Shown: one piece after another, positions 4,500-61,126 of the stretch
How the letters are laid out: each line of letters begins with the position of its first letter
Numbering within the stretch: position 1 is the stretch's first letter
NCBI GenBank assembly: GCA_026120185.1
Contig: JANUWF010001101.1
Location: 1,302,001 to 1,366,000 of the forward strand
Length of the DNA: 64,000 nt
Direction: 5' to 3'
From: Voacanga thouarsii
Lineage: Eukaryota; Streptophyta; Magnoliopsida; Gentianales; Apocynaceae
Notes under the pieces: generated by a model
Seen by the model: the letters and a program-made list of their open reading frames with translations, nothing else
Database searches by the model: none
What the model was told of the DNA's origin: nothing
Program-made: the position numbers and the translations under genes

Positions 4500-5846
4500 G
4501 ATTACGTGGATTTATTTCAGTGTTCTCGGGAAGAGATCCCATTTGACGGTCTCCAAGCATCTTGGCCAATTTCCAATTTGATTTTCAAGATTATGCATTG
4601 ATGCCTCCAAATTTCTTGTCACAGCATCCATTCCTTAGAACCTTGCCTCAGTTGAGCTCACCATCTTGTTAACCAACTCATCCAATGATGGCTTTGATAG
4701 TGGTGCATTGTAGGATAAAGAGGGTTGAGTCCTTTGATTGCCACCAACATTAGAAGGCCTAGGTTGATTTTGATTTGTCCAAGAGAAATTAGGATGATTC
4801 CTCCAACCCAAATTGTATGTGGCACTATAGGGATTGTTATCTTGTCGCCTATTACTCATAAACGCAACTTGTTCTTAGGAATTTTGAGATGAACCCATGA
4901 TGTGGCACTCATGATTGGGATGCCCTTCTCCACAAAAATCACAGTTAACATTCATTACCTGGCCTGGAGAGGGGGTCAACACCATTTATTCCATCTTTTT
5001 GTGCAAGTGCCTCAACTTTAGCTTCCAGAGCAACTATAACATCAAACTCGTGCACACCTATTCATTGCAAAGTTCGTCACCAACTCATATGATTTCTCTG
5101 GGATCTTAGAATTGATAGTCCCTCCAGCAGATATATCAACTAACTATTTGGATGCAAAATTCAGCCCACTATAAAATATCTGCATTTGCATTCCTAGCTC
5201 AAACCCATGATGAGGATACTTTCTAAGAATCTCCTTTCACCTTTCCCAATACTAATAAAGGCTTTTAGAATCTAACTGTTAGAAGGCAAAAATGTCTATC
5301 CTAAGTTTGGTTGTTCTAGCTGGGGAAAAATACTTTGCCAAAAATTTCTCAGCTAGCCCATTCCATGTAGTGATGGATCCTACAGGTAAAGATTTTAATC
5401 ATAATTTAGCTCTATCCCTTAAGAAAAAAGGAAAAAGCCTAAACTTTATAGCATCATCCGAAACACTATTCATTTTGAAGGTATCACAAATTTCTAAGAA
5501 ACTAGCAAGGTGAGCATTAAGGTCTTCATCTGATAACCCATTTGTACCATGTTCTGGATCATTTGAATAATGTTGGGTTTGATTTCAAAATTGTTTGCCT
5601 CTACCCTATGTCTAGTGATGCTCGAGTCTGTACCTGAAATCACTGTTTAAAAAAGTGATCCGTAATCCTCCTACCATTATTTCCACCATTGTTACCATTG
5701 TTATTTTGGTTAACCTCCATCTCTTCTGTGGAACTGATTCGCTTATCCTTTTGCCTGAGTGCTCTCTAAATCCTTGTCAAAGTTCTTTCAATCTCAAAAT
5801 CAAAATCCACTGGTTCTCCTTGGAATCGTCGGATCATACACTAATG
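4500..5846 (-). pseudogene. gag: Athila-like gag (A1), broken
   Basis: The structural Gag of a Ty3/gypsy element. On the minus strand the order is: an N-terminal segment from about 5846; the retrotransposon Gag core with FRLFPFSLRDRAK and ITTW near 5400-5290; the FLAKYF helix; PHHGFELG; the zinc knuckle CDFCGEGHPNHEC near 4940-4900; and the tail DNNPYSATYNLGWRNHPNFSW at 4770-4840, a signature of Athila-type Gag. Stops and frameshifts separate these blocks; the longest open pieces are about 74 codons. The zinc-knuckle cysteines and histidine are all present. No protease follows. A3 carries a clear homologue (58640-59500). Confidence 0.85.
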
Positions 5847-16350: not shown

Positions 16351-18256
16351 TAATGATTAAATAGCAAATAAAATCACAGCAAACATACAAAAAGCCAAAA
16401 AAAACAGACGAAAACGTGAATATTTACCTCTTCGTTTTCTCAAAGCTGGCTGCACTGAGATAGGTGTACTGGTGGAAACCTCTTGTCTGATTCTTGCAAG
16501 CCTCTTACTGCGTCTGTGCAAGTACATAAACGCCAAACTCTTCTTGATCTTCCAATATATGGCTTTGCCTAATCCACTTTTGGTGAAGACTAACAAGACT
16601 AAGGAACGGTTTAAGCCTTTCCGTGACAATATGCTATAGAGCAGTGTCAAGAGAAAAAAAAAACCAATTTTCTGTCACTCAAAGAACGATGCACAGAGAA
16701 GAAGTTTTTCCAAAGAGAAAGGAGTTCTTAGAAGGAGAAGAAAACCGTGCGTCTTGATGTCACTTGAATCACACATGTTTTTTCTCTTTTATCTGCTAAT
16801 CCCATAAAAACCTGATAACCTCAAAGCATCATAGTATATCCAAGAATCCTATCCCAGGTTAATATCCAGGAATTTCTGAATATTGAACAAATGTGACTCC
16901 TTTTTTCCTGTTAACCGAAAAAAAGCCTCAGGTAAAATTGGAGTTTAATTTGGTCTATTGGACTATTAGTTTAGTTTTTTGAATCAAATTAATTATTTTA
17001 ATCAGAACCAAATAAATGGCCCAGTAAATAATTAATTTTCCAGCCCAAATAAACCAATCCAATTAACAAGACTATATTAGTTTAGTCTTAGGTCAATCTT
17101 TAATTATTCAAATTGCGCTAAAGTCCTGAACAATTAATTAACCTACCAAATTAATTTAATTAATTCTCTCTTTCTATGGAGCCTAGCCCAATAATTAAAT
17201 CAGGCTACTTAAATAAAATAAATTCTATTTAATTTAATTTAAGACCAATTCCTTAGCCTAAATATAATTAGGACTTATGGTTTATACTCGGGACCAAAAG
17301 ACACATTGCCTTGGCTACTAAAATGATCAAAATACCCTTGACATATAAATAGTTGTATTTTGCATTTTAAATATTTTTCAATTTCACCATAAGGAATATT
17401 GACCCCAAGGACAATGCGTTAGCAAAGTCTCCGACCTACAAGTGAAATGACTAAAAGACCCCTCTACATATCGCCGTGCATTTGAGAGGAAGAAATGTAT
17501 TAACACCTCTCTAAATGACATCTACCATCCTTAAGCTTCTAGTCCAATGATCCACGACTTCCTGGATTGTTTTCACTTTCCAAGGGAGCTACCCTAAAGC
17601 AAACATCCAAGTTATGTTTCCTAAGGCCTTGCATATTTAGATCATTCAGACAACCACAAGGGGCGATATAGTATATAAACTATCTTGCACAAGTCTGTCT
17701 TAACTAACTAGTCATATATACCCAATATGCAAGTATATTGGTCCTACGATAGAACCTCAACTAAAGCATATCAAAGTATATGCTTCCAGCTTTGTCAGAC
17801 CACCAACTCATACTCAAGTCAAAGAGTACTAGTTCACGCTATAGCAGAGTAGTGTAGGTTTCTAACATATAGTACTTTAAGAAACCACTACTATAGGTCC
17901 TATTCTACGTATTCGAAATACGCTTATGTCATGAAGTGAGTGGACTACTCACTGACTAAAGGTAAGCTATTCCACATTTGAAATTCATAACACAATAACC
18001 TAGACATGATGAGATTCCCATTCTCATCAACCAATTAAGAACAAACGTTTATGTGTTAAGTAACACGTGATCAATACCTTACTATGAAAGACCACCATTC
18101 ACATGAACCACTTACTTAAACACAATAGGTCTTTTTCAAATGTAATTATGCGTAAATAAAATGAAAATTCACAAATAATTTCTAAGAATAAATTCTTTTA
18201 TTAAAATATTCAATGTTTACATAAAAACCTAGTCTAAGAGGACATATATCCCAACA
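16351..18256 (-). repeat. 3' LTR of C1
   Basis: Aligns over its length with 23940-25877 with many substitutions and small indels. Ends CCCAACA at 18256; next to it the minus strand has the polypurine tract AAGTGGGAGAT (18257-18267). Confidence 0.9.
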
Positions 18257-19177
18257 ATCTCCCACTTGCACTCTAAGACTAAGTCCGTAGGTGCCCACCC
18301 CTATGACACCTAAGTGTCTCTTTAAAACTCTCTCAGCCAAAGGCTTGGTGAATGGATCTGCTAGATTGTTCTCTGAGGCAATCTGGTCCACCACGATTTC
18401 CCGTCTCTGGATGAAATCCTGGATCAAGTGGTACTTTCTCTCGATGTGCTTCCCCTTCTTGTAATTTCTGGGTTCTTTAGATTGCGATGCTACTCCAGTG
18501 TTGTCGCAATACATCACAATCGGCCTATCCATGTGTGGTACGGCTCTAAGTTCTGAAAGGAACTTCCAGAGCCAGACTGTTTCCTTATATGCCTCCAAAG
18601 CTGCCACATACTCAGCTTCCATAGTTGAGTCAGTAATGCAAGTTTGCTTGATACTCCTCCATGAAATGGCTCCTCCAGACAAGGTGAAGACATATTTACT
18701 AGTGAATTTTCTCTCATCCTTATCTGCTTGGAAGTCTGAGTCTGTATATCCTGTAGGAACCAAGTCATCAGCCCTGTAAACCAGGATATAATCTCTCGTT
18801 CCCTTGAGGTACTTGAGAATATACTTTACAGTTTGCCAATGAATCTCTCCAGGGTTTAATTGATGTCTACTAACTAGGCCTATGACAAAGCAGATATCTG
18901 GCCTAGTACATAGCAGGGCATACATAAAATTTCCCATAGCCGAAGCGTAGGGAATCCTACTCATTCTGTCTTTTTCTTCTTGAGACTTAGGATAGTCCTT
19001 TGAACAAAAAGACAACCCATGTCTGCAAGAAATTAGAGCTCCCTTGCCTGAGTCCATGCTGTACTTAGCCAGCATCTTGTCAATGTATGTCACTTGGGAT
19101 AATCCTAACATTCTCTGCTTCCTATTTCTAAGAAGCTTAATCCCGAGAATGTAACTGGCTTCTCCCAAGTCCTTCAT
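18182..19177 (-). pseudogene. pol: copia reverse transcriptase end and RNase H (C1)
   Basis: 331 open codons. The N-terminal part MKDLGEASYILGIKL is the reverse transcriptase connection; IPYASAMGNFMYA and TRPDI follow; then RNase H with GYTDSDFQAD, SGGAISW, STMEAEYVA, YCDNTGV and DPFTKPL. The Asp-Glu-Asp residues of RNase H (in YTDSD, MEAEY and CDNTG) are present. The frame runs 25 codons into the 3' LTR before its stop. Upstream, the catalytic LYVDD of reverse transcriptase is preserved at 19246-19260 but sits in a different frame, so the enzyme is broken. Confidence 0.92.
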
Positions 19178-19910
19178 ACTGAATTAACTAGACAGCCAAA
19201 CCTTTATAGATGATAATGTTCCTACATCATTTCCAATGAGTAAAAGTCATCCACATACAAGGCAAGAAAAACTACATTAACGCCCTCAAATTTCCTGTAC
19301 ACGCATAGTTCATCCTTATTTTGAATAAAATCGTAAATGGACTCGATGCTTGCTTAAGTCCATAAATGGACTTCTTAAGCTTGCAAACCATATGTTCTTA
19401 GCCTTTAGCAATAAAGCCTTCCGGTTGGGATATATAGATATTTTCGCTAAGACGGCCATTTAAAAATGCCATCTTAACACCCATTTGCCATATCTCATAG
19501 TCATAATGACATACGATGGGAAGAAGGATATGAGTGGACTTAAGCATGGCTACCGGAAAAAATGTTTCCTCATAATCGATTCCCTCTTTCTGAGTATACC
19601 ATTTCACTACAAGCCTAACTTTGAAGGTTTCTACCTTCCCATCTGCTCCCCTCTTCCTTTTGTATACCTACTTACACCCAATGGGTTTTATCCCTTTAGG
19701 TGAAGCTACAAGATCCCAAACCTGATTGAAATACATAGACTCAATCTCGACTTTTATTACTTCATGCCATAGATTTGCATCGATATCAGCAATAGCCTCT
19801 TCGTATCTAGTGGAGTCTTCTTCTTGATGGTCGGAGACTAGCTCGAAAGCTTCTCCAGTCCATCTCTCTAGAACCCTAGACACTCTCCTACTACGACGAG
19901 GTTCCATTTG
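19178..19910 (-). pseudogene. pol: copia reverse transcriptase, broken (C1)
   Basis: Fragments in order on the minus strand: LWHEVIKVEIESM and KGIKPIGCKW (19668-19790), the thumb-side pieces GIDYEETFFPVAMLKS and MAFLNGRLSENIYISQPEGF (19398-19600), YGLKQA near 19350, and YVDD at 19246-19257. Family enzymes have all of these in one frame; here stops and frameshifts separate them. Confidence 0.9.
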
Positions 19911-20069
19911 TACAGGCTCTTGAGGCTATGCCTCTTCTTATTCCACAATAGGGTTAGAAGAAGTTAATTCCAAAGATAACTTCTCCTTGAGTTCTAACCT
20001 AGTTGAACCTTTAGTGGAAGTACTCTAATCATCCTCTAAGTATCTAGTATTGGTACTAACTAGTACTTT

Positions 20070-21120
20070 CTACTCCTTAGGATAATAAAAGTAACCACCA
20101 TTTGTCCCTTTTGGATACCCAACAAAATAGCATAATTTTGATCTTGGTTCCAACTTATCTCCCTTGATCAGTACATAAGCTAGATAACCCCATATCATGA
20201 GATGATTCAAACTTGGCTTATGCCCAGTCCACATCTTATAAGGAGTCCTAGGTACTAACTTGGAAGGCACCAAGTTCAGAATGTATGCCGCTGTTTCCAG
20301 GGCATATCCCCAAAAAGACACTGGAAGAGTAGCATAAGACATCATGCTTCGGGCCATTTCCATTAATGTCCTGTTTCTTCTCTCAGGTACTCCATTCTGC
20401 TAAGGTGTCCCCGGCGCAAAGAGCTGGGATACTATCTCATGATATACCATATAGTCCTTGAATTCACCAAGGAGGTATTCTCCACCATGATCTGATCGTA
20501 AAGTCTTGATCAGTTTACCTATCCGACGCTCCACTTCAGCCTTAAACTTCTTAAACTTGTCAAAAGAGTCAGACTTGTGACTCATCAAGTAAATATAACC
20601 AAACCTTGTACAATTATCCATGAAAGTGATGAAGTACTCAAACTCCCCTGTAGCTAGTGTAAATAAGGGACCACACACATCAGTGTGAACAAAATTCAAT
20701 ATCTCTTTGGCTCTATCTGCCTTTGGGGTAAATGACCTTTTGGTCATCTTTCCCATTAGGTAGGATTCACACTGAAGCCAACTTTCCAATCTCAATGAGC
20801 CCAAAGGCCCATCATGGATTAACCTTTGAATCCTGGTTGAGTTGATATGACTCAACCTTAGATGCCAAAGATATGAGTCATTGACATTGATCTTTCTCTT
20901 CCTAGCTAAATGTTTAGATTGAGCGTTATTTAATTAATTGTTAATAGGGTTTAAGAAGAATAGATTTCCATACATGTGTCCAGAACATAAAATTTCTCCA
21001 TCTCTACTGATAGTAATACCAGAATGGAAAGATACAGAATATCCTTGATTTATTAGTTTCGCAACTGAAATCAAATTCTGTCGAAATCCAGGTACATATA
21101 AAATATTTTTTAAAACCACT
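20070..21120 (-). pseudogene. pol: copia integrase, broken (C1)
   Basis: Minus strand. The segment 20934-21119 (NILYVPGFRQNLISVAKL) links protease to integrase. The zinc-binding part includes LSHINSTRIQRL and CESYLMGK near 20870-20750. The catalytic core shows TDVCGP, RSDHGGEY and, after a stop between PGTP and QNGVPERRNRT, the Glu of that motif, so all three D-D-E residues are visible. 20070-20363 continues with FWGYALETAAYILN and SKLVPRTPYKMWTG. At least three in-frame stops or shifts disable it. Confidence 0.9.
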
Positions 21121-21239
21121 AATCCATTACAATCAAAAATAAGATCTAGCTCTCCTACTGCAAGGGCCCAAACTTATGCTCTATTTCCCATGTGTAGCCC
21201 ATGTTTATCCTTCTGGAGTCTTTTAATCTTTCTAAACCC

Positions 21240-22142
21240 CTACAAGAAGTTACAGATGTGATCAGTGGCCCCTAAATCAATAATCCAAGTAGAAGTCCAT
21301 CCAACCATTAATATAGACTCTAGATAGAAAATATTACCTGTGGGGTTTTTCTTGGCTTGAAGATCTGGACACTCATTTTTCCAGTGCCCCTTCTTTTCAC
21401 ATTTGAAGCATTTGCCCTTGGGTTTGTCTTTGAGTTGGGATTTGGGCTGGGCCACTGCGTTTCCCTTCTTCCTTTTGAACTTTCTAGGCTTGGACCCAGT
21501 TCTAGAGGAAGAAACCTTAGCAATCATAGCTTTTGATTGAGGCTTCATAACCTTCCCCACCATCTGGAGCTCTTTCATCAACTCAATTAAACTTATATTT
21601 AACTTGTTTATGTTGTAATTCAACTCGAACTGAGTAAAGGAACCCAATAGAGATTCGAGAACCATGTCTACTTGGCTCTCGGGGTCAACAATAGCCCCTA
21701 AGATTTCTGCTTCCTCGAAAGCAGCAATCATCTTGAGCATGTACGTTCTGATTGATGCTCCTTTAGCCATCTTAGTGTTAATTATTGTTCGAAGAGCCTC
21801 ATGCCTTGCAGGCTGGCTCTTGTCCACGAACATCTTGGCTAGTGATTGGCTAATATCATACGTAGAAGTGATGTGCTCGTGTTTTGACTGGAGCACATTA
21901 GACATGGAGGCTAACATATAGTAGCGTGCCGTTTCGTCAGCCTTCTTCCACCCCTTCTCAGGCTCTTGCTCTTCAGCGGTGGAACCTTCCCCGATAACAG
22001 GGCATGTTTCGTAGAGGACATACTTATACTCCTCAATTGTGAGTATTATGTCCAGGTTCCTCTTCCAGTCCACATAGTTTGGACCTATTAGCTTATTCTT
22101 GCAGAGAATAATGGCCAAAGGACTAAAAGAATCTCCCACCAT
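21240..22142 (-). pseudogene. gag: copia gag with start of protease (C1)
   Basis: 300 open codons, the best-preserved piece of C1. The N-terminus has LIGPNYVDWKRNLDIIL, the copia Gag core. A CCHC zinc knuckle CFKCEKKGHWKNEC lies near residue 246 (21365-21410), preceded by a basic stretch. The frame then enters protease with WIIDLGATDHIC, where the catalytic Asp-Ser-Gly of copia proteases reads Asp-Leu-Gly. It stops soon after. Gag would form the virus-like particle in the cytoplasm. The start ATG at 22142 is followed by a plausible N-terminus. Confidence 0.9.
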
Positions 22143-23925
22143 TTCTGAAAAAAATGAAAATAAAAGAAAAAATTTAGTTTGTGAAAAAAATAAATTAATT
22201 TGTGCACTTTATTCTCATATTAAAACTGATGATAGTTAACTATTATCTTTAATATAATTAATTTGGCTCTTAGAAAAACTGACATAGCTTCTTGGGAAGA
22301 TTAACAGTTCCCTAAGCTAAGTGTGTTAACCACCACAAATTAATTTCCCTTTTAGGTAATGATCTAGAAGATAACTCCATCAAGGGGATGGCCGTTTTCT
22401 CTAATTTCCTATGGACATTCCTCGCACTAAAACTTATAACGTGGGCTGGCTGATCATAGCACGTGTCCTAGGTTATTAATTACATCCTTCTATTAGATCT
22501 AGATCCTTGTGGTATCCCCATCCTATACGGGTTCACGTCCAGAGTGACGTGAGGGGACCCACGATCTCTAATGAGGATCGTGATGGAAGCCATGGGGCCG
22601 TTGAAACCCCTCTCCCACTTAGTCTTTTAAAATAAGGGTTTTCTGAAAAATACCCTTTTGAAAATTTCCATTAAGTTTTTCCTTAACTCAAAAAATAAAA
22701 TACCTAAATCCATTAAAATATCTATATCAAGGTTTATATCCTTTGAGAGATTTTTCCCTAGACTAATTTTATTTAAGTTAAAAACTTAATAGTTTCAAAA
22801 AAAATTCAATTAAAACTTTCAGAGACTTTGGTCTCAAATTTATTTGACGAAATAATTTTTCTTGTGCAAAAATAAAACAAAATGGCTTTCTATTTTAACT
22901 TATAAAAATATCTAAATCTAATATATTTTCTATGTCAAGGATTAAATCCTTTGAGAAAATATCTAAGGATTAATTTTTGTTCAAGTTAAAATAACTATTT
23001 AATTTGTAGAAAAATATTTTTCTTGTCAAAAAAATTCCCAAAGACTTTGGTCTTTGAGAAATTGTGCACATAGGTACTTAAAAATAAATAGCATACTAGA
23101 AAACAATAGACGTTTTCATGCTTTTCCTATTTTTAAACCTAAGTGCCCAAATAATAGAATTAAACACATTTATTAATTAATTAAATGGTCTTGTTTAATT
23201 TTAAAATCCCTTACTAATATTTTTCATGCAAAAATATTCCACGAATATTAACTATTGCAAAAATATTAACTTCGCCTGGTATGGAACCCAAAACAAAAAA
23301 GAAAATTCAAGAAAATTACAAGAAAAAAAAATAAAAAATTTCTCCTGGGTCCACTGTACCCGTCGCACTGGAATACGTGGTCCACAACACCTGTCGCATG
23401 GAACAACCACCTCATTGGTCCATCCAAGATCCCCGACCTGTGTTGCTTGACCCGCTCCAGTGCCGACCCACGAGAAATCTAAACCGCGGTTGAATTGCAA
23501 TTTGCAATTCATCGAGCCAATCAACGCCAATCCAAGCCGCCTTAGCTCTAGGTACAGAAGACTGCTGGTGGCTCGGCTCTCCGAGCCCAGCCAATCAACA
23601 GTGCATTCTTCTTCATTTTTTTCGTGCGTCTTCTTTCTACAAATTTTCTTCTCTGCAAGTCTCTCGATGGCTCTTGGCTCTCAGATTTCAACCCAAAACG
23701 AATGAAACCAAAAACTAACAACCGCCTATACCCATTAACATTGGACTTACACGATTTGCTAAGGAAAATAGTAAATTACATATGATCCTAAACCTTAATC
23801 CATGAGGTGAACAAAGTGTCTATCCATCCAAAAAAACCAACGAAGGATCATAGTGCATTCACACAAAACTGTCTAGTTTTATTTAACTAGCATACATGCT
23901 TTCTATATTTGCACAAAATCTTCAT
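22143..23925 (-). other. long leader of C1
   Basis: About 1.8 kb between PBS and gag without coding signal. The part at 23340-23700 is clearly richer in G and C than its surroundings. Several short overlapping frames there on both strands look fortuitous. Confidence 0.6.
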
Positions 23926-23939: not shown

Positions 23940-25877
23940 TGAAGATTAAATGGAAAATAAAATCACAGCAAACATATAAAAAACCAGAAAAATAGAGACG
24001 GAAATGTGAATATTTACCTCTTCGTTTTCTCAAAGCTGGCTGCACTGGGATTAAAAGCACTAGGATAGGTGCACTGGTGGAAACCTCTGGTTTGATTCCT
24101 ACAAGCCTCCTACTGCGTCTGTGCATGTACATAAATGCCAAACTCTTCTTGATTTTCCAATATATGGCTCTGCCTAATCCACTTTTGGTGAAGACTAACA
24201 AGACTAAGGAACGGTTTAAGCCTTTCCTTGACAATATGCTATGGAGCAGTGTCAAGAGAAAAAAAAACCAATTCTCTGTCTCTCAAAGAACGATGCACAG
24301 AGAAGAAGTTTTTCCAAAGAGAAAGGAGTTCTTAGAAGGAGAAGAAACCCGTGTGTCTTGATGCCACTTGAATCACACACGTTTTTTCTCTTTTATCTGC
24401 CAATCCCATAAAAACCAGATAACCTCAAAGCATCATAATATATCCATGACTCTTATCCCAGGCTAATATCCAGGAATTTCTGAATATTAAACAAATGTGA
24501 CTCCTCTTTTCTTGTTAATCGAAAAAAAGCCTCAGATAAAACAGGACTTTAATTTGGTCCATTGGACTCTTAGTTTAGCCTTTTGAACCAAATTAATTAT
24601 TTTAATCTGAACCAAATAAATGGCCCATTAAATAATTAATTTTCCAGCTAAAATAAACCAATCCAATTAACAAGACTATATTAGTTTAGTCCCAGGTCAA
24701 TCTTTAATTATTCAAACTGGGCTAAAGCCTTGAACAATTAATTAACCCACCAAACTAATTTAATTAATTCTCTCTCTCTCTATGGACCTTTATTTTATTT
24801 TAGCCAAATAATTAAATTAGGCTACTTAAATAAAATAAATTCTATTTAATTTAATTTAAGACCAATTCCTTAACCTGAATATAATTAGGACTTGCAGTCT
24901 ATACTAGGGACCAAAAGACACACCGCCTTGGCTACTAAAATGACCAAAATACCATTGTCATATAAATAGCTGTATTTTGCATTTTTAAATATTTTTTAAT
25001 ATCACCATAAGAAAATATTGACCCCAAAGATAATGCCGCGTTAGCAAAGTCTCCAACTTACAAGTGAAATGACTAAAGCACCCCTCTACACATCACTGTG
25101 CATTTGAGAGGAAGAAATGTACTAAGACCTCTGTAAATGATATCTACCATCCTTAGGCTTCTAGTCCAATAATCCATGACGTCCTGGATTTTTTTCGCTT
25201 TCCAAGGGAGCTACCCTAAAGAAAACATCTAAGTCATGTTTCCTAGGGCCTTGGATATTTAGATCATTCAGACAACCACAATGGGTGATATAGTATAGAA
25301 ACTATCTTGTACAAGACTGAAACTCTCTAGTCACATATACCCAATATGTAAGTATATGAGTCCTACGATAGAACCTCAACTAAAGCATATCAAAGTACAT
25401 ACCTCCAGCTTCGTCAGACCACCAATTCATACTCAAGTCGTAGAGTACTAGTCCACACTGTAGCAGTAGTAATCTAGGTTTCTACCATATAGTACTTTAA
25501 AAAACCACTGCTACAGGTCCCGTTCTACGTATTCGAAATACACTTATGTCATGAAGTGAGTAGACTACTCACTGACTAAAGGTAAGCCATTCCTTATTTG
25601 GAATTTATAACACAATAACCTAGACATGATGAGATTTTCATTCTTATCAATTGGTTAAGAACAAACGTTTATGTGTTAAGTAACTCATGATCCATACCTT
25701 ATTGTGAAAAACCATCATTCACATGAACCACTTACTTAAAAATAATAGGTCCTTTCCAAATGTAATTGTGCACAAATAAAATGAAAATTCACAAACAATT
25801 TCTGAGAATAAATTCTTTTATTAAAATATTCAATGTTTACATCAAAAACCTAATCTAATAGGGCATATATCCCAACG
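23940..25877 (-). repeat. 5' LTR of C1
   Basis: About 1.94 kb, from TGAAGATTAAATGG to CCCAACG on the + strand (canonical end CCCAACA). Pairs with 16351-18256. Confidence 0.9.
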
Positions 25878-35759: not shown

Positions 35760-37499
35760 ATAAATAGGTAAGGGTCTAGCCAAATCCCTTATCTTCTTGA
35801 TGGTTTAGAAAAAAATTCTTAACAGGAAATAATAAAGTTTCATTCAGTGCATGTTTTTGGAAGTATTATTTAGTTTTTTAGGCCAATATCTCGGTAATTA
35901 ATTTGCCGTGTTGAAATTATTCACCATTAAAATTTTTTTTTATCCTTTGGCATAATTAACTCAGGCTTTTAGGCAAAAAAGTTCTAGAAAGCCTTCTACC
36001 TTCTTTTCCAGATGAATTCTAAAATATAAAACATTATTGAACTACAACATAACAAAACGTGTATTAGCTAACAAGCAAGGATACAATTTCATTTTAAAAT
36101 TTTTTTCCTTTTTTATGTCAGTTGTTGCTTATATGTTGTTTTATTGAAACCGGTATCAAGGTTGGTCATTAAGGAGATTCTACAAGCCAACCAACTTGTG
36201 AAGAATCTAGAGTAGATATTTAGGATAATTTCGAATAGACCTTAATTCAAAATTTAGATTGGGTATAATAGATTAAACAGAGAATAGCTCACAATTTTGG
36301 ATGTTACAGGCTTTCTTGGGGTATTAAATAGAGGATAAGTACTTATTTACCTAACGTGTCATTACTAATCTTTTGAATCCCTACCATCTTTAACTTTTCG
36401 TGATGGTTGTTGAAAAGCTTAAGTACTACAATTAGGTTGTTCAAAAGTGCATTACATAAATGCATCCTCTATAGAATTTTTATATTTTCTCAGATCACTT
36501 TTAACTTTTTGCGAAGATTAATGAAATCTTGAGAAGTCGAATAAAAGGACTCGTAAAAGTAGTGGAAATGTTTTTCAACTGAAATAGTACAACATCGCTA
36601 AAAATTTTATATGAATGCATCCTCAAAAGAAAATTTTTTAACCTTTCGCTTGATTGTTAATATTCTAAGAACAACTACATTTTATGCTAAACTAGGGTGC
36701 ATTAACACTAAAAATAAAAGGATCTTTCATATCACTCAAAAATTTATTAGTACAAATGTGGATTCACAACCGAACAAACTCCATTATAAATCCACAGAAT
36801 GATGCGCTCCTTTTGGCCCATTTCCTTGCTAATAACAGTTGCCCAATTCATAGGTCATCACATCAATAATGTCATCGGGCACAATCTCAAGCTGTAATGA
36901 AATTTAGTGAGAGGCATGAAGTGAGATTATTTAGAGATAATAAATAATTGTATAACAATGCAAAAAATAGTTTAAATTGTTTATACTCGCACCTCAACCA
37001 TCTTTTTTGTTGTGTTTAAAGCGTTCATTAATAAGCAGAAAAACCATTTGGTTATAATTAAGGTTTTTCTTAAGGCAATATTGCACTAAAAGCATTAAAA
37101 CAAACCTGTATCCTTCTACACGAAGTCACATAGTTTCCCTACTCTACAAGAGAACATAATATGTTTTACACAATAAAAATTCTTTCGTGATCATACAATG
37201 GTTTTATTAGTTGCTATTGGTATTCGAGAAGGTTTCCAAATAGTTTAAAAGCTATCATCAGCTTGGGTTTCACGTGATGTTGACATTTTTGTAATAGATA
37301 ATGCAGGTTTTTAACAATTTTATTAGCTTCAGAATACTTTGATATTTGTGTAGTGAATCATATAAAAAGGGAGGTAGGACGTATTAATAAAATGCATCCT
37401 ACTTTGAACTTCTACTAATTTCCTTACGAACTTCTACTAATTTCCTTATGAATATCCCTAAAAAAGTAAAAATGAGCTTAGGATGCATTATGTAAATTT
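35760..37499. other. unassigned AT-rich DNA
   Basis: No credible gene or element. ATGCATCCT recurs at several places (about 36462, 36613, 37390) without obvious structure. Confidence 0.4.
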
Positions 37500-37504
37500 C
37501 ATAT

Positions 37505-38194
37505 TGTTTACGTCAAATTTAGCCGATCCGTTGCAACGATAACTTTAAACCAATGCCGATATGAATTCTGCCAAGTGGATGATGATGTCGAGAAAATTTT
37601 CAGCCGATGTACTCAGTCAACATTGGAACTAGGAGCGATAAGTCGTCACCCCCACATCGCAGTACGATCGGTAAAACACTACCGTTCTTAACCGCCAAGG
37701 ATGGGCCATGAAGTGAGATTCTCTTCACATTCGGATAGTCGGCAACCATGCAACAGCAAGCATAAAATGAGCAAGGAGTCCTAGAGTGAAGAACCCAACA
37801 ACAATAGTCTCAAACTAAATTACCAAAATTTCTTCCAATTTTCAATTTCACTTTCTACATTTCTTTTACAGCTTTCCATAGAACTTTGTTTACGTTTTCT
37901 TTAAAGTTTTCCTTACTACTTTAATTACCATCTTTTCGTTTTATGTTGTTTTGATTTCAAATTCTAATACTTTTGTATTTGTTCATCATCTCAATTGAAA
38001 TACACTGTTTTCAATCGTAGTTTGCTTTCACATGCAATATTTCTACCTTCTTGGACTCTTTTTATAGTAAGTTTAAGGAATGCACGTCTTTTAAAAGGTT
38101 CACTTATCCATTCATCTTTTCATCGAACTATTTATGTTTATTGGAAGAGCAGCTGATTGACAGTTCCATCAGCTCCCCATTTCATAAAGCAACA
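37505..38194 (+). repeat. left LTR of P1
   Basis: TGTTTACGTCAAATTTAGCC to AAAGCAACA. Followed by TAAA and the PBS. Contains several CCGAT/ATCGG words. Confidence 0.82.
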
Positions 38195-38198
38195 TAAA

Positions 38199-38218
38199 TT
38201 GGCACGCCCAGTAGGACC
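38199..38218 (+). other. primer binding site, left arm of P1
   Basis: TTGGCACGCCCAGTAGGACC, five bases after the LTR. The TGG start and position are those of a tRNA-primed PBS; I cannot name the tRNA with certainty. Confidence 0.7.
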
Positions 38219-38255
38219 AAAGATAGTTGTTGCATGCAATTGTGTTTAGGACGTA

Positions 38256-38804
38256 TTATGGCTAATCCTCAGTTGCAATCCTCAGGGCCTTCATCGGATT
38301 CCCCCAATCAGCCTACAATTCGAGCTTTACAAGAAGCATTTGATTCTGTAAAGACGGCGACTGGCAACACCCCAGTTACCATCCCTAAGCAACAAAGGGC
38401 ACAATCTTCGTCTCCTCCCTAGGTGCCCCAGTTGATACCCACGTCTTTAACTGCCATACGACAGGCCATGGAGCAGTGTACAGGTGAACTCATTTAGAGT
38501 CTTATTCCTCAATTCGCCATAGTGTTCCGACCTCTGCTTCAGAACGAGCTCTATAATTTTGAACAAATGCAAAATGCTCATGGGACAGCTCAAGCAGGTG
38601 TGTATTTTTCCCCCTCATCCATTGTTGCACCATCTTATAGGTTAGTACAATTGTTGCGCCATGAATTGCCTATGCTAATGCCCAGGGGGCACTAAGGGAG
38701 TCTACGGAATCCTTCCTAGGAAGAACTTCACTATATCCGGTCACAGGGACCCAGGTGCCGATGAGGGCATAGGTATTCTACGATCAAAATGCAGCACTCC
38801 CTAT
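38256..38804 (+). pseudogene. gag: gypsy gag start in P1, broken
   Basis: ATG at 38256 begins MANPQLQSSGPSSDSPNQPT and ALQEAFDSVKTA; the frame meets a stop at 38420 and several later. Position after LTR and PBS makes it gag. No zinc knuckle or pol is reached: at 38805 the sequence turns into the inverted copy of its own start. Confidence 0.55.
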
Positions 38805-38913
38805 AAGCTCGAACTGTAGGTCGATCGGGGGAATTCGATGAAGACCCTGAGGATTGCTGTTAAGAATTAGCCATAATATGTCCTAGACATAATTGCATGT
38901 AATAGGTACCTTT

Positions 38914-38933
38914 GGTCCCACTGGGCGTACCAA
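38914..38933 (-). other. primer binding site, right arm of P1
   Basis: The minus strand reads TTGGTACGCCCAGTGGGACC, 18 of 20 identical to the left PBS but inverted. Confidence 0.7.
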
Positions 38934-38937
38934 TTTA

Positions 38938-39623
38938 TGTTGCCTTACAAAAAGGAGAGCCGATGGAACTGTCGATCGGCTGCTCTTCCAATAAACATAA
39001 ACAGTCCAATGGAAAGATGAATTGATGAGTCGAACATTTTAAAAGACATGAGTTCCTTGAACTTATTATAGAAAGGGTCCAAGAAAGCAGAAATATTGCA
39101 TATGAAAGCAAACTAGGACTGAAAATAGGATATTTTGATTGAGACGATGAACAAATACAAAAGTATTAGAATTTGAAATCAAATCAACATAAAATGAAAA
39201 TCTGGTAATCAAAGTATTAAGGAAAACTGTAAAGAAAACGTAAAAAAAGTTGTAAACAAAGCTGTAAAAGAAATGGAAAAAAGAAAATTGAAAACTGGAA
39301 GAAAATGTGGTAATTTAGTTTGAGACGATTGTTGTTGTGTTCTTCACTCTAGGGCTCCTTGCTAATTTTATGCTTGCTGTGGCATGGTTGCTGACTATCC
39401 AAACGTGGAGAGAATCCTGCATCTTGGCCCATCTTTTGCGGTTAAGAACGGTAGTGTTTTACCGATTGTGCCGCGATGTGAGGGTGACGGCTTATCGGCT
39501 CCTGGTTCTGATGTTAACCGAGTATATCGGTTGAAGATTTTCTTAACGTCATCATCCGCTTGGCAGAATTCGTATCGGCTTCGGCTTAAAGTTACCGCGG
39601 ATTGGCTAAAAATGACGTCAACA
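38938..39623 (-). repeat. right LTR of P1, inverted
   Basis: 686 bases, the reverse-complement counterpart of 37505-38194. Open frames at 39337-39659 on the + strand are antisense LTR sequence, not genes. Confidence 0.82.
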
Positions 39624-39628
39624 CATAT

Positions 39629-41155
39629 ATATTGTTTACCCTCGAATATCGCTGAATAGCAAAATTCATAGGACTAACATATCTAAACTACATCCCGCAT
39701 CATCGAGGACTAATGGTACATCGGGGTATATCTATGGCAGCAGCTATCTCAGAGGATCTTGGAGCCTGCAGTAGAATTGGATATGGGATAGCTGGATAAT
39801 AGTCATGCAGTTATTTCCGTTGGCAAGTAACCTCAAACTTCTTTCTCGGCATAGGTAGGTCAATATCATCACTAGTGTGTCCACTGGATGCATGCATTAC
39901 TCCTTGTAGACCCTATATTTGAAGGTCAACTGTCTTTGCTACTAGGGCAACTAGTAGAAGTGTGAGTATCATCTCACCAGCTAAATTATCTAATTGCAAA
40001 AACTACCTTAGCAAGTCAGGTATCTAGATGCTTTGTAAGCTCATCCTTACTAAAAGATGAAAGGTAGCTATAAAACATAAAGACCTCAGGCATCCATTAA
40101 ATGCATCCTCAAATGTCCTTGCCTCGCCATTCCTAGTCCTGTCCCTCTTGATTTCCCATGCATCCTATATAGGTGGCCGTAGAGGTGCTAGGACTGGGAC
40201 AATATCTATTATAGACATATGAGGCGCAGGCTCCATAAGGACCTCCTACGAGGTAATGCCAAGACTATCCCAAGGTCATCTCTCCCATCTACCGATATTA
40301 TCTTGAAATAACTAGGCTCTCAATCTATACTTACGGTCCTTTTCAAGCAACCTGCTTTGTGATGTCATACATGGTGGCATCAAGCACAAGGTGGCTATTT
40401 ATATAAATAGGATCCATCTCAGTCACTGTAAGAATCCGAGAACATGTATCTCGAATGAGTTCCAATACCACGTGAGAATGATAGTTAGCCTCACACAGGG
40501 TAGCTATCATAATAAGAATAGGCCAATGAAGTGTATCTGACTGTAATGACAAAATAAAATAGAAATAAATCAATATTATTGAATTAGTATTCAATACAAA
40601 ATGAATGATAAACTCATCATAACAATAACACCTAAACTAATATTTTGATACTCAGGTGGCTTGACACTTAGTGGAGATGGATTACTAATTTGCCACCTTG
40701 TCCTCAACTAGAACTAAGTCATGTAACCTGGATCTACTCAATCACCACTCACTTCCTCAACAATTGTCTGTCAGAGTACACCCTACATAGTAATAAAATG
40801 TGCACGCTGGTAAGGCCAACTAGTCGTGTGCTTTTCTCTAATCCAAGTCATGTGTAACTCAACATAATAATCACAACCTTGGAGAATGGGTTGTGACATA
40901 CTAAATTATCAAAGCACATAATCACGATAGAAGAACTCTATAACATCATATTAGATGAGTAGGGTACATGACCACTATACGTCACTACGCTTGGTATAAT
41001 GAGTTATCAATGACTGCACTAAGGCTTCATCATAGTAGTGCCAAATAAACTACAAAACATTAAGATAAAAAATAATATCTAAATAAGAACAAATTACTAC
41101 ATATGCACATAATAGGAAATAATTCATTTGGAGAATACTTACTAATGAGTACCTA
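39629..41155. other. unassigned DNA with a possible minus-strand exon
   Basis: On the minus strand a plausible acceptor (GTCATTACAG) ends at 40541 and is followed by 65 open codons (40540-40343) starting SDTLHWPILIMIATLCEANY and ending at a stop. The surroundings on the same strand (40720-41050) have scattered coding-like words broken by stops. It may be a decayed host or transposase gene; I do not recognise it. Confidence 0.3.
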
Positions 41156-44634: not shown

Positions 44635-45832
44635 TGAAAAACCTTAGAGGGGAAGTGAATAAGGTTTTTGGCATTCTAAAAATTTTTGACTCGTTTGATA
44701 TACAGAATAATAATGATCATCAAGTTTCTTGCGCCGACTTTATGGTGACAAAGAAAGTTATCCAAGAACTCTTTGAGAAATATTCAGATTCAGACTAAAG
44801 AAAGAAATACAAAGTAATTAATGACATATGAAAGGAGATGAGACATAGAATGTATAGTGGTTCGATCTATCGACATCTACGTCCACTACCTTAAGCACAC
44901 ACTTATGGATTTTCAACCAGATTTTATTTCCTCCACTTAATGAAATCAAACTGTACCACATACAAGAGAGGATTACCACACGAGGTTTTCCAAAACCTCT
45001 CAATCAAACAATCACAACAAGATTTACCCCAAATGGGTTTTACACCACAACCTTGTACAACAAAGAAGATTGAATATCAATAAAACAGTAAAAGCTCACT
45101 TATTTGAGTAGATGTTCACTAAGGTATAATGTACAAACACTTTTACCTTTGACACAATATGAATTCACTTTGAAGCACTTGGTAAAAGGAGATTTTTGTA
45201 AACTGTTGAGCAATAGTGTTTCTTAGAAGAATGTCACAAAAATCTTATATCTAATGTTGTTTAGAGGCTATTTATAGAGCTAAAAAGTGAGGTGTCAACG
45301 GCTATAAAATGGCTATAATTTTTCTGTTAAATTTGTCCATGTTTTGGACTTAGGTTTCAGACGACGATGTATCCAGAAGGTAAGTTCAAAATGGCACTTT
45401 TTTATATAGAAACAATTCAACACTGTTTATAGGATTATGGACGAATCTTTTGGATGCAGAAACATCCAAACTACTCAATCCAAAATTCTGAGATTTTCAA
45501 AATTTTGAAATCTTTTTCTTTGTGTGCTTCAAGGTAGAAATCAATTGAATCAAAAGGTAAAGAGACACAGGAATTAATAGAAATACCTTAACAACACTTC
45601 ATAGTCTAAAGTTCTTCTATAAGGACTTCTTGGTATGTAACCTCATATACGTTGATCTTCTTTTTTATCTTCCATACTTGAATTCCATTGCTCAAGAGTT
45701 GCTTATAATCATATTTGAATACCTTACAAGAACAGAGGTCAAACATGTCCTATCACATATAGATTACACAAGTTAGTTCACATCAATGTTTGTCATAACT
45801 CAAAACATAGGAAAAAGCCCTTAGGGCTAACA
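44635..45832 (-). repeat. 3' LTR of C2
   Basis: 1198 bp, TGAAAAACCTTAG to GGGCTAACA. Pairs with 53022-54216 with few differences for this window. The adjacent polypurine tract on the minus strand is AAAAAGGGGGAGAT (45833-45846). Confidence 0.93.
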
Positions 45833-53021: not shown

Positions 53022-54216
53022 TGAAAAACCTTAGAGGGGTGAATAAGGTTTTTAGCAAGCTAAAATTTTTTTACTCGTATGATATACAAAATAATAATGA
53101 TCATCAAGTTTCTTGCACCGACTTTATCGTGACAAAGAAAGTTATCCAAGAACTCTTTGAGAAATATTCAGATTCAGACGAAAGAAAGAAATACAAAGCA
53201 GTCAATAACATATGAAAGGAGATGAGACACAGAATGTATAGTGGTTCGATCCACCAACATCTACGTCCACTACCTTAAGCACACACTTAAGGATTTTCAA
53301 CCAGATTTCATTTACTCCATTTAATGAAGTCAAACTGTACCACATACAAGAAAGGATCACCACACTAGGTTTTCCAAAATCTCTCAATGAAACAATCACA
53401 ACAAGGTTCACCCCAAATGGGTTTTATACCACAACCTTGTACAACAAAGGAGATTGAATATCAATAGAATAGTAAAAGCTCACTTATTTAAGTAGTTGTT
53501 CACTAAAGTACAAAGTACAAATACTTTTACCTTTGACACAATATGAATTCACTTTGAAGCACTTTATAAAAGGAGATTTTTGTAAACTGTTGAGCAATAG
53601 TGTGTCTTAGAAGAATGTCACAAAAATCTTATATCTAATGTTGTTTAGAGGCTATTTATAGAGCCAAAAAGTAATGTGCCAAAGACTATAAAAAGGTTAT
53701 AATTTTTCTATTAAATTTATCCATATTTTGGACTTAGGTTTTGGATGACGATGTATCCAGAAGGTAAGTCCAAAATGGCACTTTTTCAGGAAGAAATAAT
53801 TCAACACTGTTTACAGGATTTTGGACGAATTTTTTGGATGCAGAAACATCCAAACTACTCAATCCAAAATTTTGAGATTTTCAACACTTTGAAATCTTTT
53901 TCTTTGTGTGCTTCAAAGTAGAAATCAATTGAATTAAAAGGTAAAGAGACATAAGAATTAATAGAAATACCTTAATAACACTTCCTAGTCTAAAGTTCTT
54001 CTATAAGGACTTCTTGGTATGCAACCTCATATACGTTGAATTTCTTTTGGTCTTCCATACTTAAATTCCATTGCTCAAGAGTTGCTTAACAATTATATTT
54101 GAATGCCTTAGAAGAACAAAGGTCAAACATGTCCTATCACATTTCGATTACACAAGTTAGTTCACATCAATATTTGTCATAATTCAAAACATATGAGAAA
54201 GCCCTTAGGGCTAATA
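53022..54216 (-). repeat. 5' LTR of C2
   Basis: 1195 bp, TGAAAAACC to GGGCTAATA (canonical CTAACA with one change at the outer end). Confidence 0.93.
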
Positions 54217-57274: not shown

Positions 57275-57660
57275 ATCACTTAAGTTTTATCCATATTTAT
57301 CTTAACCAATATTTGAATTTTCTTCTTTCTTACATTCCTTAAAGTTAGGAATGTTGTCTTAGGGAAGACACAATGGTAATATTTTAATGATGCGTACTTA
57401 TTTGGGTATAAAAATCATATAAAAACTCAGCACATTCCCAATCAAGTTTACATTAAAACGTTAACCCCAAATTACACATATGAGCAAGCGTACTCATCAT
57501 TAACATAGCATAGGGTTTAAACAAGTGTCGATCCTCACCTCCAATCAATTCAACACAACCTGCAACAATACATGTAAAGTTCCCTGTAAAGCATAAACGT
57601 GTTGAATATCCTCAATCCATGCAAGTAGACATGATCATGTTAATGAAGGCATCATCATGG

Positions 57661-58072
57661 CATTACATGAAAACTAATGCACATTCCATGTATAACCTCT
57701 ACTAAACCATCACAAATAGCCACAATTCCACCCTTAGCTATATGCATGAAGCCCCTAATGATCATATGCATGAATCAAGTATCAAAGAATCATTAACTCC
57801 TAATCTAATCCAACTCATGAAGCTTCAAGGAGTAATCCACAATTCAAGCTAGCATACACAATCCAATGCATTACATGAAAACCAATGCACATTCCATGTA
57901 TAACCTCTACTAAACCATCACAAATAGCCACAATTCCACCCTTAGCTATATGCATGAAGCCCCTAATGATCATATGCATGAATCAAGTATCAAAGAATCA
58001 TTAACTCCTAATCTAATCCAACTCATGAAGCTTCAAGGAGTAATCCACAATTCAAGCTAGCATACACAATCC
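57661..58072. repeat. 208-bp tandem duplication in A3
   Basis: Unit 57661-57868 is repeated at 57869-58072; by eye they differ at one position (CTAATG against CCAATG). Confidence 0.9.
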
Positions 58073-58639: not shown

Positions 58640-59500
58640 GCTTTCCACGGCTTTGATCCCGTGGATTTTCCTTCGTGTTTCCTGACAATGTCCTAGCTTG
58701 ACGATCTCCTAATAGTTTAGCTAACTGACCAATTTGGTTCTCTAAATTGCACATAGAGGTCTCTAGGTTCCTTGTTATCACATCGACCCCTTAGAACTTA
58801 GTCTCTGTGGTACTTACCAATTGGCCAATCAACTCTTCCAATGGTGGCTTTGAAGGTGCTGCAGTATTGTTCCTGGGGTTTTGACACCTTTGATTGCCTC
58901 CAAAATTGAAATAACTATGCCTAGGTTGATTTCCATTGCTCCAAGAGAAATTAGGGTGATTTCTCCAACCAGGATTATAGGTAGAGCTATAAGGGTTGTT
59001 ACCTGACTGAATATTACCTGCAAAGGCCGCTTGTTCCAAAGTTTCTTGGAGTGACCCCATATTTTGGCATTCATGACTAGGGTGTCCCTCTCCATAGAAA
59101 TCACAACTTATGTTTAACACCTGGCTGTAAGGCATCACCATCTATTCCATCTTTTAGGTTAAGGCGTCCACCTTAGCTTCCAATGCTGCCATAGCATCCT
59201 CCTTGTGTACTCCTTGCACACGAGCTCTAGACCGTGTACTGCCCCAAGAATAGTTATTTGAAGCCAAATTTTCAATAAGCTCAAATACCTATTCCGAGGT
59301 TTAATGATTAATGGAACCTCCTGCAAAAGAGTCCACCACTTGACGTGTCGCAAACGTGAGGCCATTCAAAAAGATAAGCATCTACATTCTTAGCTCAAAT
59401 CCGTAGTGTGGGCATTTTCTTAACATCTCCTTAAATCTCTTTCAACTTTCATATAAGGTCTCAGAGTCTAATTGTTGGAAGGCAAATATCTCGCTCCTAA
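58640..59500 (-). pseudogene. gag: Athila-like gag, C-terminal half (A3)
   Basis: Minus strand: FKEMLRKCPHYGFELRM, VVDSFAGGSINH, FELIENLASNNYSWGS, the zinc knuckle CDFYGEGHPSHEC (second Cys changed to Tyr), NPYSSTYNPGWRNHPNFSW, and NLENQIGQLAKLLGDRQ. Homologous to A1 gag. The N-terminal half was lost with the PBS and most of the 5' LTR, the deletion joint being near 59505. Confidence 0.85.
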
Positions 59501-61126
59501 TATCTCGTTTTTGCTTCGTTTTACCCCAAAAATCTGTAATAATGAACAAAATACCTTTCTAAGGGTAAAATCTCAAATGTGAAAGAATATGATTAGTTAT
59601 TGAACAAAATGTATTACAAAAGTACCTCAAATAACTAAAAAAAATATGACTAATTTAGCCTCTATCACTTAACCATGTGACATTGTCTTAAAAAGAATTC
59701 AAGAAGAATTCTTGTCTCCATTATTTTTGCAAGCTTTGTCCTAACCTTTTTAAATTTAAACTACTCCTATTTCTTTAATTTATTTTTATATCCATAAAAT
59801 TCTTGGATAATTCCTTACTTAGAATTTCAAAAAATTCCAGCTCTTGTGGGATAGGAGGTTGGCCAAAAATGTGGAGGAAGAATAGAAAAAGGTTTCAAAT
59901 AAATCACCATAACTATTTCTTCAAGAACTTCATTTTCTTCTTATTCTTGTTTTGGTTAAAATCTGAAAAAATTTCTAGATTTTCCTCATGGCTGGTTTTC
60001 AAAATTTGCAACAAGCTTTTTCTATCTAATTCTCGCAAAGAACCAACTATCTTGTGTGAAACACTTTGGAATTTTGTAGCCTTACAAACTACACCAAACC
60101 AGAATTTTTTTTTTTTTTCCAGCAAACAAGCAATATTTGAACATGGTATGGAGCCATTCGTTAGTGCTCAAGAACACCTGAAACTTTCTCCTTTCTTCTT
60201 CAAGATGGTGGCTAGAAAACCACAATTAATGGACCTTTAAACACCCCAAAACTCCAGCTGCAAAACCGTCCCAAAGAAGACAAAAAGCTTAAATTCCAGA
60301 TTTTTTTTCCAGCTTTACCTATTCAATGCTAAGGCCTATTTTCTTCATCAAACTTTACCTTGTTTCGGCCATAATGCAGCCATGGATAGAACCCCTTAGG
60401 TTCTCCATCTACCTTGATCATTAGGACTCCATTAACATAGCTCAAAACACTCCTATCTTCACTCCATTCAAATTTATTCAAATTTCAAATTGAATTTCAG
60501 ATTTTTATTCTATTAAACACTCACCTAGCTAGATAATAAAACCAGAAACTCCTCTGCTATTCCACCACCATTTTTGACCAGCCTAAAGCTAAAACAACTC
60601 CCAATTCCACGGTCAAATCATAGCTAGTTCAGACATACACCATTGAAGGACAAGAAACCTTCTAAGAGCAAATACCATTACTCAATCCTATACATCAAAC
60701 ATCTCCACTTTTCTCTCAATTTGAATTTTGAGAAAGTTGAAACTCTCTCGCTCCTTCTTGTATAACCAAAAGCCTCCCTTAAGCTAGGCCATTCGGCCTC
60801 ATTTACACACACACGAAATCACGCACTCTCTCAATTTCTCTCAAAAACACTAAGAATATCAAGTACACACACTAAGCTTCTTCAATCTTTAATCACCTCT
60901 ATACATCTGAAATCACTCCAAGAACCTTCAAACCAACTAGGATTCGGTCCCTACTCACTCCTAGGCTACTCTATAACATTAAAAACACCAAAGTTGATCT
61001 TCTAATCAAATTAAACACACCTTTTTCAGTCAAAAACAAGAAGAACATCAAGAAGGTAACTTTAAACACCTTGCACCTTCTTCATCTCATCATCACTATT
61101 TCAATATCATCCTAATCTTTTTTCTC

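What the first reader, a model, noticed from the sequence alone, without database searches (positions are those of the whole stretch)
37500..39628. LTR retroelement integrated as a palindrome: two inverted LTRs, two PBSs, one target duplication
Seen: a 690-bp LTR, PBS and gag start on the + strand (37505-38327) face the same three parts inverted (39623-38805) across a 477-base loop. The outer ends are TG...CA, both from the U3 side, and the unit is flanked by a perfect CATAT repeat. Known: normal LTR elements have direct LTRs, and integrase joins one U3 and one U5 end. Inference: the cDNA was made as a palindrome, perhaps by a strand or template switch at TTCGAGCTT/AAGCTCGAA (38319-38327 and 38805-38813), and integrase used two U3 ends. 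If transcribed, it would form an 820-base-pair hairpin able to feed small-RNA silencing of its family.
Basis: partly seen in the sequence, partly recalled or inferred. Interest (0 to 1): 0.75.

Follow-up and report, generated by a model that had tools for sequence, protein, structure and literature searches.

The report
Inverted double-LTR retroelement insertion
A decayed plant retroelement fragment carries two mirror-image end repeats inside one short host-DNA duplication, as if integrase had pasted in the same end of two DNA copies at once, although a chance product of two older insertions is not ruled out.

Summary
A 690-bp LTR, PBS and gag-like start (37505-38327, +) face the same parts inverted (39623-38805) across a 477-base loop. 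The arms are 85.8% identical over 817 aligned columns. Both outer ends are U3-side TG ends, directly flanked by an exact 5-bp CATAT repeat whose chance rate is 0.0016-0.0023. The loop reads best, though only modestly, as gag continuing from the left arm, so the novel joint is probably 38804/38805, with up to 9 bp of microhomology.

I favour one integration event using two U3 ends: two 5'-end cDNA pieces joined head to head in gag, before integration or, after a two-molecule concerted integration, by host end joining. A simple fold-back cDNA has one open end and does not suffice alone. Main rival: two inverted insertions of one family, a deletion between them and a chance CATAT; the flanks' unequal G+C mildly favours it.

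No relative or empty site was found: the genome search did not complete (11 calls), and the collections that could be scanned gave none. A hairpin RNA is structurally possible; expression was not testable. Verdict: real, unusual, single, old, unproven.

The parts
37500..37504 (.). Left copy of the presumed target-site duplication, CATAT
   Evidence: exact 5-bp match to 39624-39628; chance 0.0016 flank against flank
37505..38194 (+). Left LTR, U3 end outward, 690 bp, TG...CA
   Evidence: U3 side inferred because the PBS follows the other end
38200..38217 (+). Left primer-binding site TGGCACGCCCAGTAGGAC, 5 bases after the LTR; tRNA not identified
   Evidence: the same 18 bases stand in a Capsicum annuum sequence printed in PMC10211496 (passage seen)
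38258..38804 (+). gag-like frame of the left copy (ATG at 38258) running into the loop; 5 in-frame stops, 3 of them after 38692
   Evidence: no Pfam match and no protein relative, so 'gag' is inferred from position and reading frame
38328..38804 (.). Loop between the arms, 477 bases
38805..38813 (.). Head-to-head joint: AAGCTCGAA, inverted match to TTCGAGCTT at 38319-38327 (possible microhomology)
38805..38874 (-). gag-like start of the right copy (ATG at 38874, 23 codons, one stop)
38915..38932 (-). Right primer-binding site, 2 of 18 bases different from the left
38938..39623 (-). Right LTR, inverted, U3 end outward, 686 bp
39624..39628 (.). Right copy of the presumed target-site duplication, CATAT

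Best explanation
One integration event placed two U3 ends of the same LTR-retroelement family into one target site. Shown: two complete inverted LTRs, each with PBS and gag-like start, U3 ends outward, inside an exact 5-bp repeat, with no second pair of LTR ends between them. Inferred: two 5'-end cDNA pieces, one reaching about 820 bases and one about 1300 bases in from its U3 end, were fused head to head at a short microhomology (TTCGAGCTT/AAGCTCGAA). The fusion came either before integration (overlap of two plus strands, or end joining of two cDNAs) or after it, when one intasome took a U3 end from each of two cDNAs and the host joined their broken far ends. Afterwards both arms decayed alike. 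The insertion has no intact gene left and, if ever transcribed, would give a hairpin RNA.
For: Exact 5-bp CATAT at both outer LTR ends; chance 0.0016 (flank against flank), 0.0018 (two random 5-mers of the window) or 0.0023 (frequency of CATAT). Both outer ends are TG termini. Decay is even: of 84 transition differences 39 keep C or G on the left and 45 on the right. Divergence shows no constraint: in the 23 shared gag codons 11 of 11 differences lie in codons that change the residue, against about 70% expected without constraint, and the PBS differs at 2 of 18; this fits copies alike at insertion that decayed in place. The loop follows the left gag frame best: 2 stops in its first 145 codons, matched or beaten by 436 of 18162 window samples. 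Precedent for arguing one integration from one TSD: Sabot and Schulman 2007, PMC1950507 (abstract and whole body section read).
Against: One copy only; no empty site and no relative found. G+C of the 500 bases left of the unit is 0.294 and right of it 0.405, so the flanks may not have been neighbours before. Two independent insertions of similar age would decay just as evenly and without constraint. The unit was picked because it looked striking, so 0.002 overstates the case. In PMC1950507 recombinant complexes outnumber template-switch ones (table: 20 and 2 in about 7 Mb of Triticeae sequence). The frame evidence for the loop is modest and no gag relative confirms it.
Confidence: 0.6

Rival explanations
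1. Two separate insertions of the same family in opposite orientation, followed by a deletion from gag of one to gag of the other (perhaps at the 9-bp microhomology); the CATAT match is chance.
For: LTR elements recombine and lose DNA after insertion (PMC1950507). The flanks differ in G+C. Arm divergence of 14% is also what two old family members could show.
Against: Needs the 5-bp match by chance (0.0016-0.0023) at exactly the place and a canonical length of a TSD, and a deletion that removed everything between two gag starts.
Confidence: 0.3
2. One reading: the growing plus strand folded back on itself at TTCGAGCTT and copied its own 5' part, giving a hairpin cDNA that was then integrated.
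For: Explains the 477-base loop that best follows the left gag frame, and predicts arms identical at birth, which fits the unconstrained decay.
Against: A fold-back hairpin has a single open U3 end; two-ended integration with a TSD needs a second open end, so the loop must first be opened or the hairpin copied. No evidence for such a step (reasoning, no call).
Confidence: 0.08
3. Assembly or fold-back read artefact.
For: Inverted palindromic joins are a known class of library and assembly artefact (recalled).
Against: Such artefacts repeat one sequence nearly exactly; here the arms differ at 116 of 817 columns with decay on both sides, and each arm ends at an LTR terminus next to CATAT.
Confidence: 0.02

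Closest known systems
Template-switch complex LTR insertions of Triticeae, rice and maize (Sabot and Schulman 2007, PMC1950507; abstract and body read)
   Same: Abnormal insertion of one family inside a single 5-bp TSD, argued to be one integration from two co-packaged templates
   Different: Those have three LTRs in direct order with two complete cores; here two LTRs are inverted, both outer ends are U3, and no pol or 3' end is present
Two-molecule concerted integration by retroviral integrases in vitro (PMC4358916, passages seen)
   Same: Concerted assays there yield circular and linear full-site products; I take the linear ones to be two donor molecules joined at one target (general knowledge, not stated in the passages seen)
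   Different: In vitro with donor DNAs whose far ends stay free; here the far ends would have been joined and the product fixed in a genome
Aberrant HIV integrations with host repair of one end (PMC5041404, abstract and passages seen)
   Same: An integrase-made joint combined with host-mediated joining
   Different: There the aberrant end lacks the 5-bp repeat; here both outer ends look integrase-made and the irregular joint is internal
DIRS-1, a retrotransposon with inverted LTRs (PMC5633606, passages seen)
   Same: Inverted LTRs
   Different: DIRS-1 has three ORFs with a tyrosine recombinase between the inverted LTRs; here the PBS and gag start are duplicated around a 477-base loop and a TSD flanks the unit
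Inverted-repeat silencing loci such as maize Mu killer (recalled; search listing only)
   Same: An inverted duplication of a transposon part that could yield hairpin RNA
   Different: No transcript or small RNA is known here; the arms are 14% diverged

Membership tests
LTR retrotransposon insertion | LTRs with TG...CA ends | tested here: met
   TGTT...CAACA on both
LTR retrotransposon insertion | PBS just after the 5' LTR | tested here: met
   TGG... begins 5 bases after each LTR; the priming tRNA was not identified
LTR retrotransposon insertion | LTRs in direct orientation with outer U3 and U5 ends | tested here: not met
   LTRs inverted, two U3 ends outward
LTR retrotransposon insertion | Short (4-6 bp) target-site duplication | tested here: met
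   CATAT exact; no empty site was available, so chance is not excluded
Ty3/Gypsy superfamily | pol domain order or RT phylogeny | not testable with these tools
   No pol in the unit; gag piece without Pfam match or protein relative
Template-switch complex insertion (PMC1950507) | Internal LTR, two complete cores, similar outer LTRs, flanking TSD | tested here: not met
   TSD and similar outer LTRs are present; no internal LTR and no complete core
DIRS-type element | Inverted LTRs around ORFs including a tyrosine recombinase | tested here: not met
   Only a 477-base loop without an intact ORF lies between the arms, and each arm has its own PBS and gag start
Hairpin silencing locus | Transcript across the inverted repeat and small RNAs from its arms | not testable with these tools
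   Only predicted folding was computed

The most novel reading that the evidence does not exclude
A plant LTR-retroelement intasome took the U3 ends of two different cDNAs, integrated them together with a normal 5-bp duplication, and the host sealed the resulting break by microhomology joining inside gag: an in vivo fossil of two-molecule, two-U3 integration that also builds a ready-made hairpin source against its own family.
Probability: 0.3. Interest if true: 0.6.

Novelty: new variant of a known kind. Interest (0 to 1): 0.42.

Why it matters
If one integration is right, integrase in a plant cell accepted two U3 ends, and LTR elements can by accident create TSD-flanked inverted repeats of themselves. 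Such units would be a plausible, datable origin for hairpin loci that silence a family. Pipelines that look only for direct LTR pairs would miss them; a cucumber study, for instance, removed two LTR pairs in opposite directions by hand (PMC4600303, passage seen).

Tried and rejected
Relatives. Protein searches with the gag piece gave 218, 203 and 31 word-sharing candidates, none scoring E up to 0.001, 1 and 1. DNA patterns from the LTR and PBS gave 0 and 2 stretches in viral contigs (the 2 were not read, so their relevance is unknown) and 0 and 0 in genome contigs, a bacterial and archaeal collection. Pfam gave nothing for the gag piece. In 10 flank translations Pfam gave 2 matches below the curated cut-off: plant mobile domain, E 0.034, and a T-antigen domain, E 0.12. 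ARAGORN, with the bacterial code, found no tRNA in the window, so the PBS was not matched to a tRNA.

Flanks. The 300 bases on each side show no continued homology: local score 20 direct and 20 inverted, against a mean of 19.1 and a maximum of 32 in 300 shuffles. The repeat finder lists one 24-nt inverted match of 79% between the flanks (37465-37488 and 40028-40051); not followed up, of a kind the tool warns is often chance.

Rejected: assembly artefact (arms differ at 116 of 817 columns); DIRS-type element.

Literature. Ten searches, and the hits, served the PBS letters. In the titles and abstract starts listed I saw no TSD-flanked palindromic LTR insertion. The listings are capped (for example 25 of 60, 25 of 198, 12 of 121) and the library lacks most subscription journals, so this is weak evidence of absence.

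Full report
Observation. Two arms, 37505-38327 on the + strand and 39623-38805 on the - strand, form an inverted repeat with a 477-base loop. Over 817 aligned columns they differ at 116 (84 transitions, 32 transversions), with 8 further gap columns; identity is 85.8% and K2P 0.161. The LTR with its 5-base spacer is 86.2% identical (689 columns) and the part from PBS to gag 83.6% (128 columns). Each arm has an LTR starting TGTT and ending CAACA, a TAAAT spacer, a PBS and an ATG of a gag-like frame. The homology ends sharply inside at 38327/38805, and outside within the CATAT repeats. No other copy of the unit is in the window at E 0.01.

Target duplication. CATAT stands directly outside both LTR ends. 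The flanks match in register at 5 bp and not at 4, 6 or 7. The chance that two random 5-mers of the window agree is 0.0018, and the frequency of CATAT is 0.0023; for 5-mers drawn from the two 2-kb flanks the chance of agreement is 0.0016. CATAT occurs 5 times in 1996 positions of the right 2-kb flank and 4 times in the left (both counts include the copy at the unit's edge).

The loop and the joint. From the left ATG at 38258 the frame has 2 stops in 145 codons, then 3 more by 38804. Of 18162 same-length samples of the window 436 had as few stops, and a composition shuffle gave 0.034. Within the loop the left gag frame has 5 stops, the right arm's gag frame 12, and the other four frames 6, 8, 7 and 7. 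So the loop most likely continues the left copy, and the novel joint is at 38804/38805, where AAGCTCGAA mirrors TTCGAGCTT at 38319-38327. This support is modest, and no gag relative was found to confirm it.

Decay. Of 84 transition differences 39 keep C or G on the left and 45 on the right. They fall on 23 CG, 18 CHG and 43 CHH sites, against 39, 34 and 184 conserved C or G sites: the enrichment at CG and CHG is as expected of methylated plant repeats (general knowledge). In the 23 gag codons shared by both arms all 11 differences lie in 8 codons that change the residue, where about 70% is expected without constraint, and the PBS differs at 2 of 18 bases. The divergence therefore looks like decay in place after insertion, of similar extent on both sides. 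At 1.3e-8 changes per site per year (recalled rate) K2P 0.161 would be about 6 million years. Two insertions of similar age would look the same. Divergence of both arms makes an assembly artefact very unlikely.

Mechanism. A normal LTR element cannot give this by simple inversion, because both sides carry LTR plus PBS plus gag start, which belong together only at the 5' end. Two 5' ends are needed. A fold-back of one plus strand makes a hairpin with a single open end, so it needs a further opening or copying step before two-ended integration. Two cDNAs solve this: overlap or end joining of two 5' pieces before integration, or one intasome taking the U3 ends of two cDNAs, followed by host joining of the far ends. 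These steps are inference. Template switching between two co-packaged RNAs, and plus-strand pieces that dissociate and anneal elsewhere, are described in PMC3187697 (section 1.3 read). In vitro concerted integration gives circular and linear full-site products (PMC4358916, passages seen). Host joining of an irregular viral end is described in PMC5041404 (passages seen). In what I saw of these papers the present structure is not shown. Which route was taken cannot be told from one product.

Rival. Two inverted insertions with a deletion between two gag starts need only ordinary events plus a chance CATAT. G+C is 0.294 in 37000-37499 and 0.405 in 39629-40129; further out it is 0.309 and 0.301 on the left and 0.385 and 0.339 on the right. 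This fits flanks of different origin, although 2-kb bins of the window range from 0.28 to 0.41. PMC1950507 counts 20 recombinant and 2 template-switch complexes in about 7 Mb of Triticeae sequence. I put this rival at 0.3.

Hairpin. The unit as RNA folds to -1236.8 kcal/mol with 739 left-to-right arm pairs, against -509 to -536 in 5 base-composition shuffles; the longest perfect runs are 38, 29 and 23 bases. So a transcript would form a long imperfect hairpin. Expression and small RNAs were not testable.

Known relatives. The left PBS letters also stand, before what reads by eye like a gag start, in a Capsicum annuum sequence printed in PMC10211496 (passage seen), so this kind of PBS is found in another plant. 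Ty3/Gypsy is my guess from memory and was not tested. The window is from a plant: two matches to the plant snoRNA family snoR71 and Copia-like ORFs, named by eye.

Noticed in passing
16355-18255 and 23944-25876: Direct repeat of about 1.9 kb, 89.3% identical, around Copia-like ORFs on the - strand (18182-22208, named by eye): probably an LTR pair.
   Followed up: no
44635-45830 and 53022-54214: Direct repeat of 1.2 kb, 91.9% identical, possibly another LTR pair.
   Followed up: no
5202-5308 and 59398-59504: Two snoR71 snoRNA matches, each about 140-185 bases downstream of one copy of a 68.7% identical duplicated stretch (4543-5059 and 58698-59214).
   Followed up: no
57660-58072: A unit of about 208 bases repeated twice in tandem at about 99% identity, probably a recent duplication.
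   Followed up: no
about 40873-41061, - strand: Plant mobile domain (PMD) match in the right flank, below the curated cut-off, E 0.034.
   Followed up: no
37465-37488 and 40028-40051: 24-nt inverted match, 79%, between the left and right flank of the unit; may be chance.
   Followed up: no
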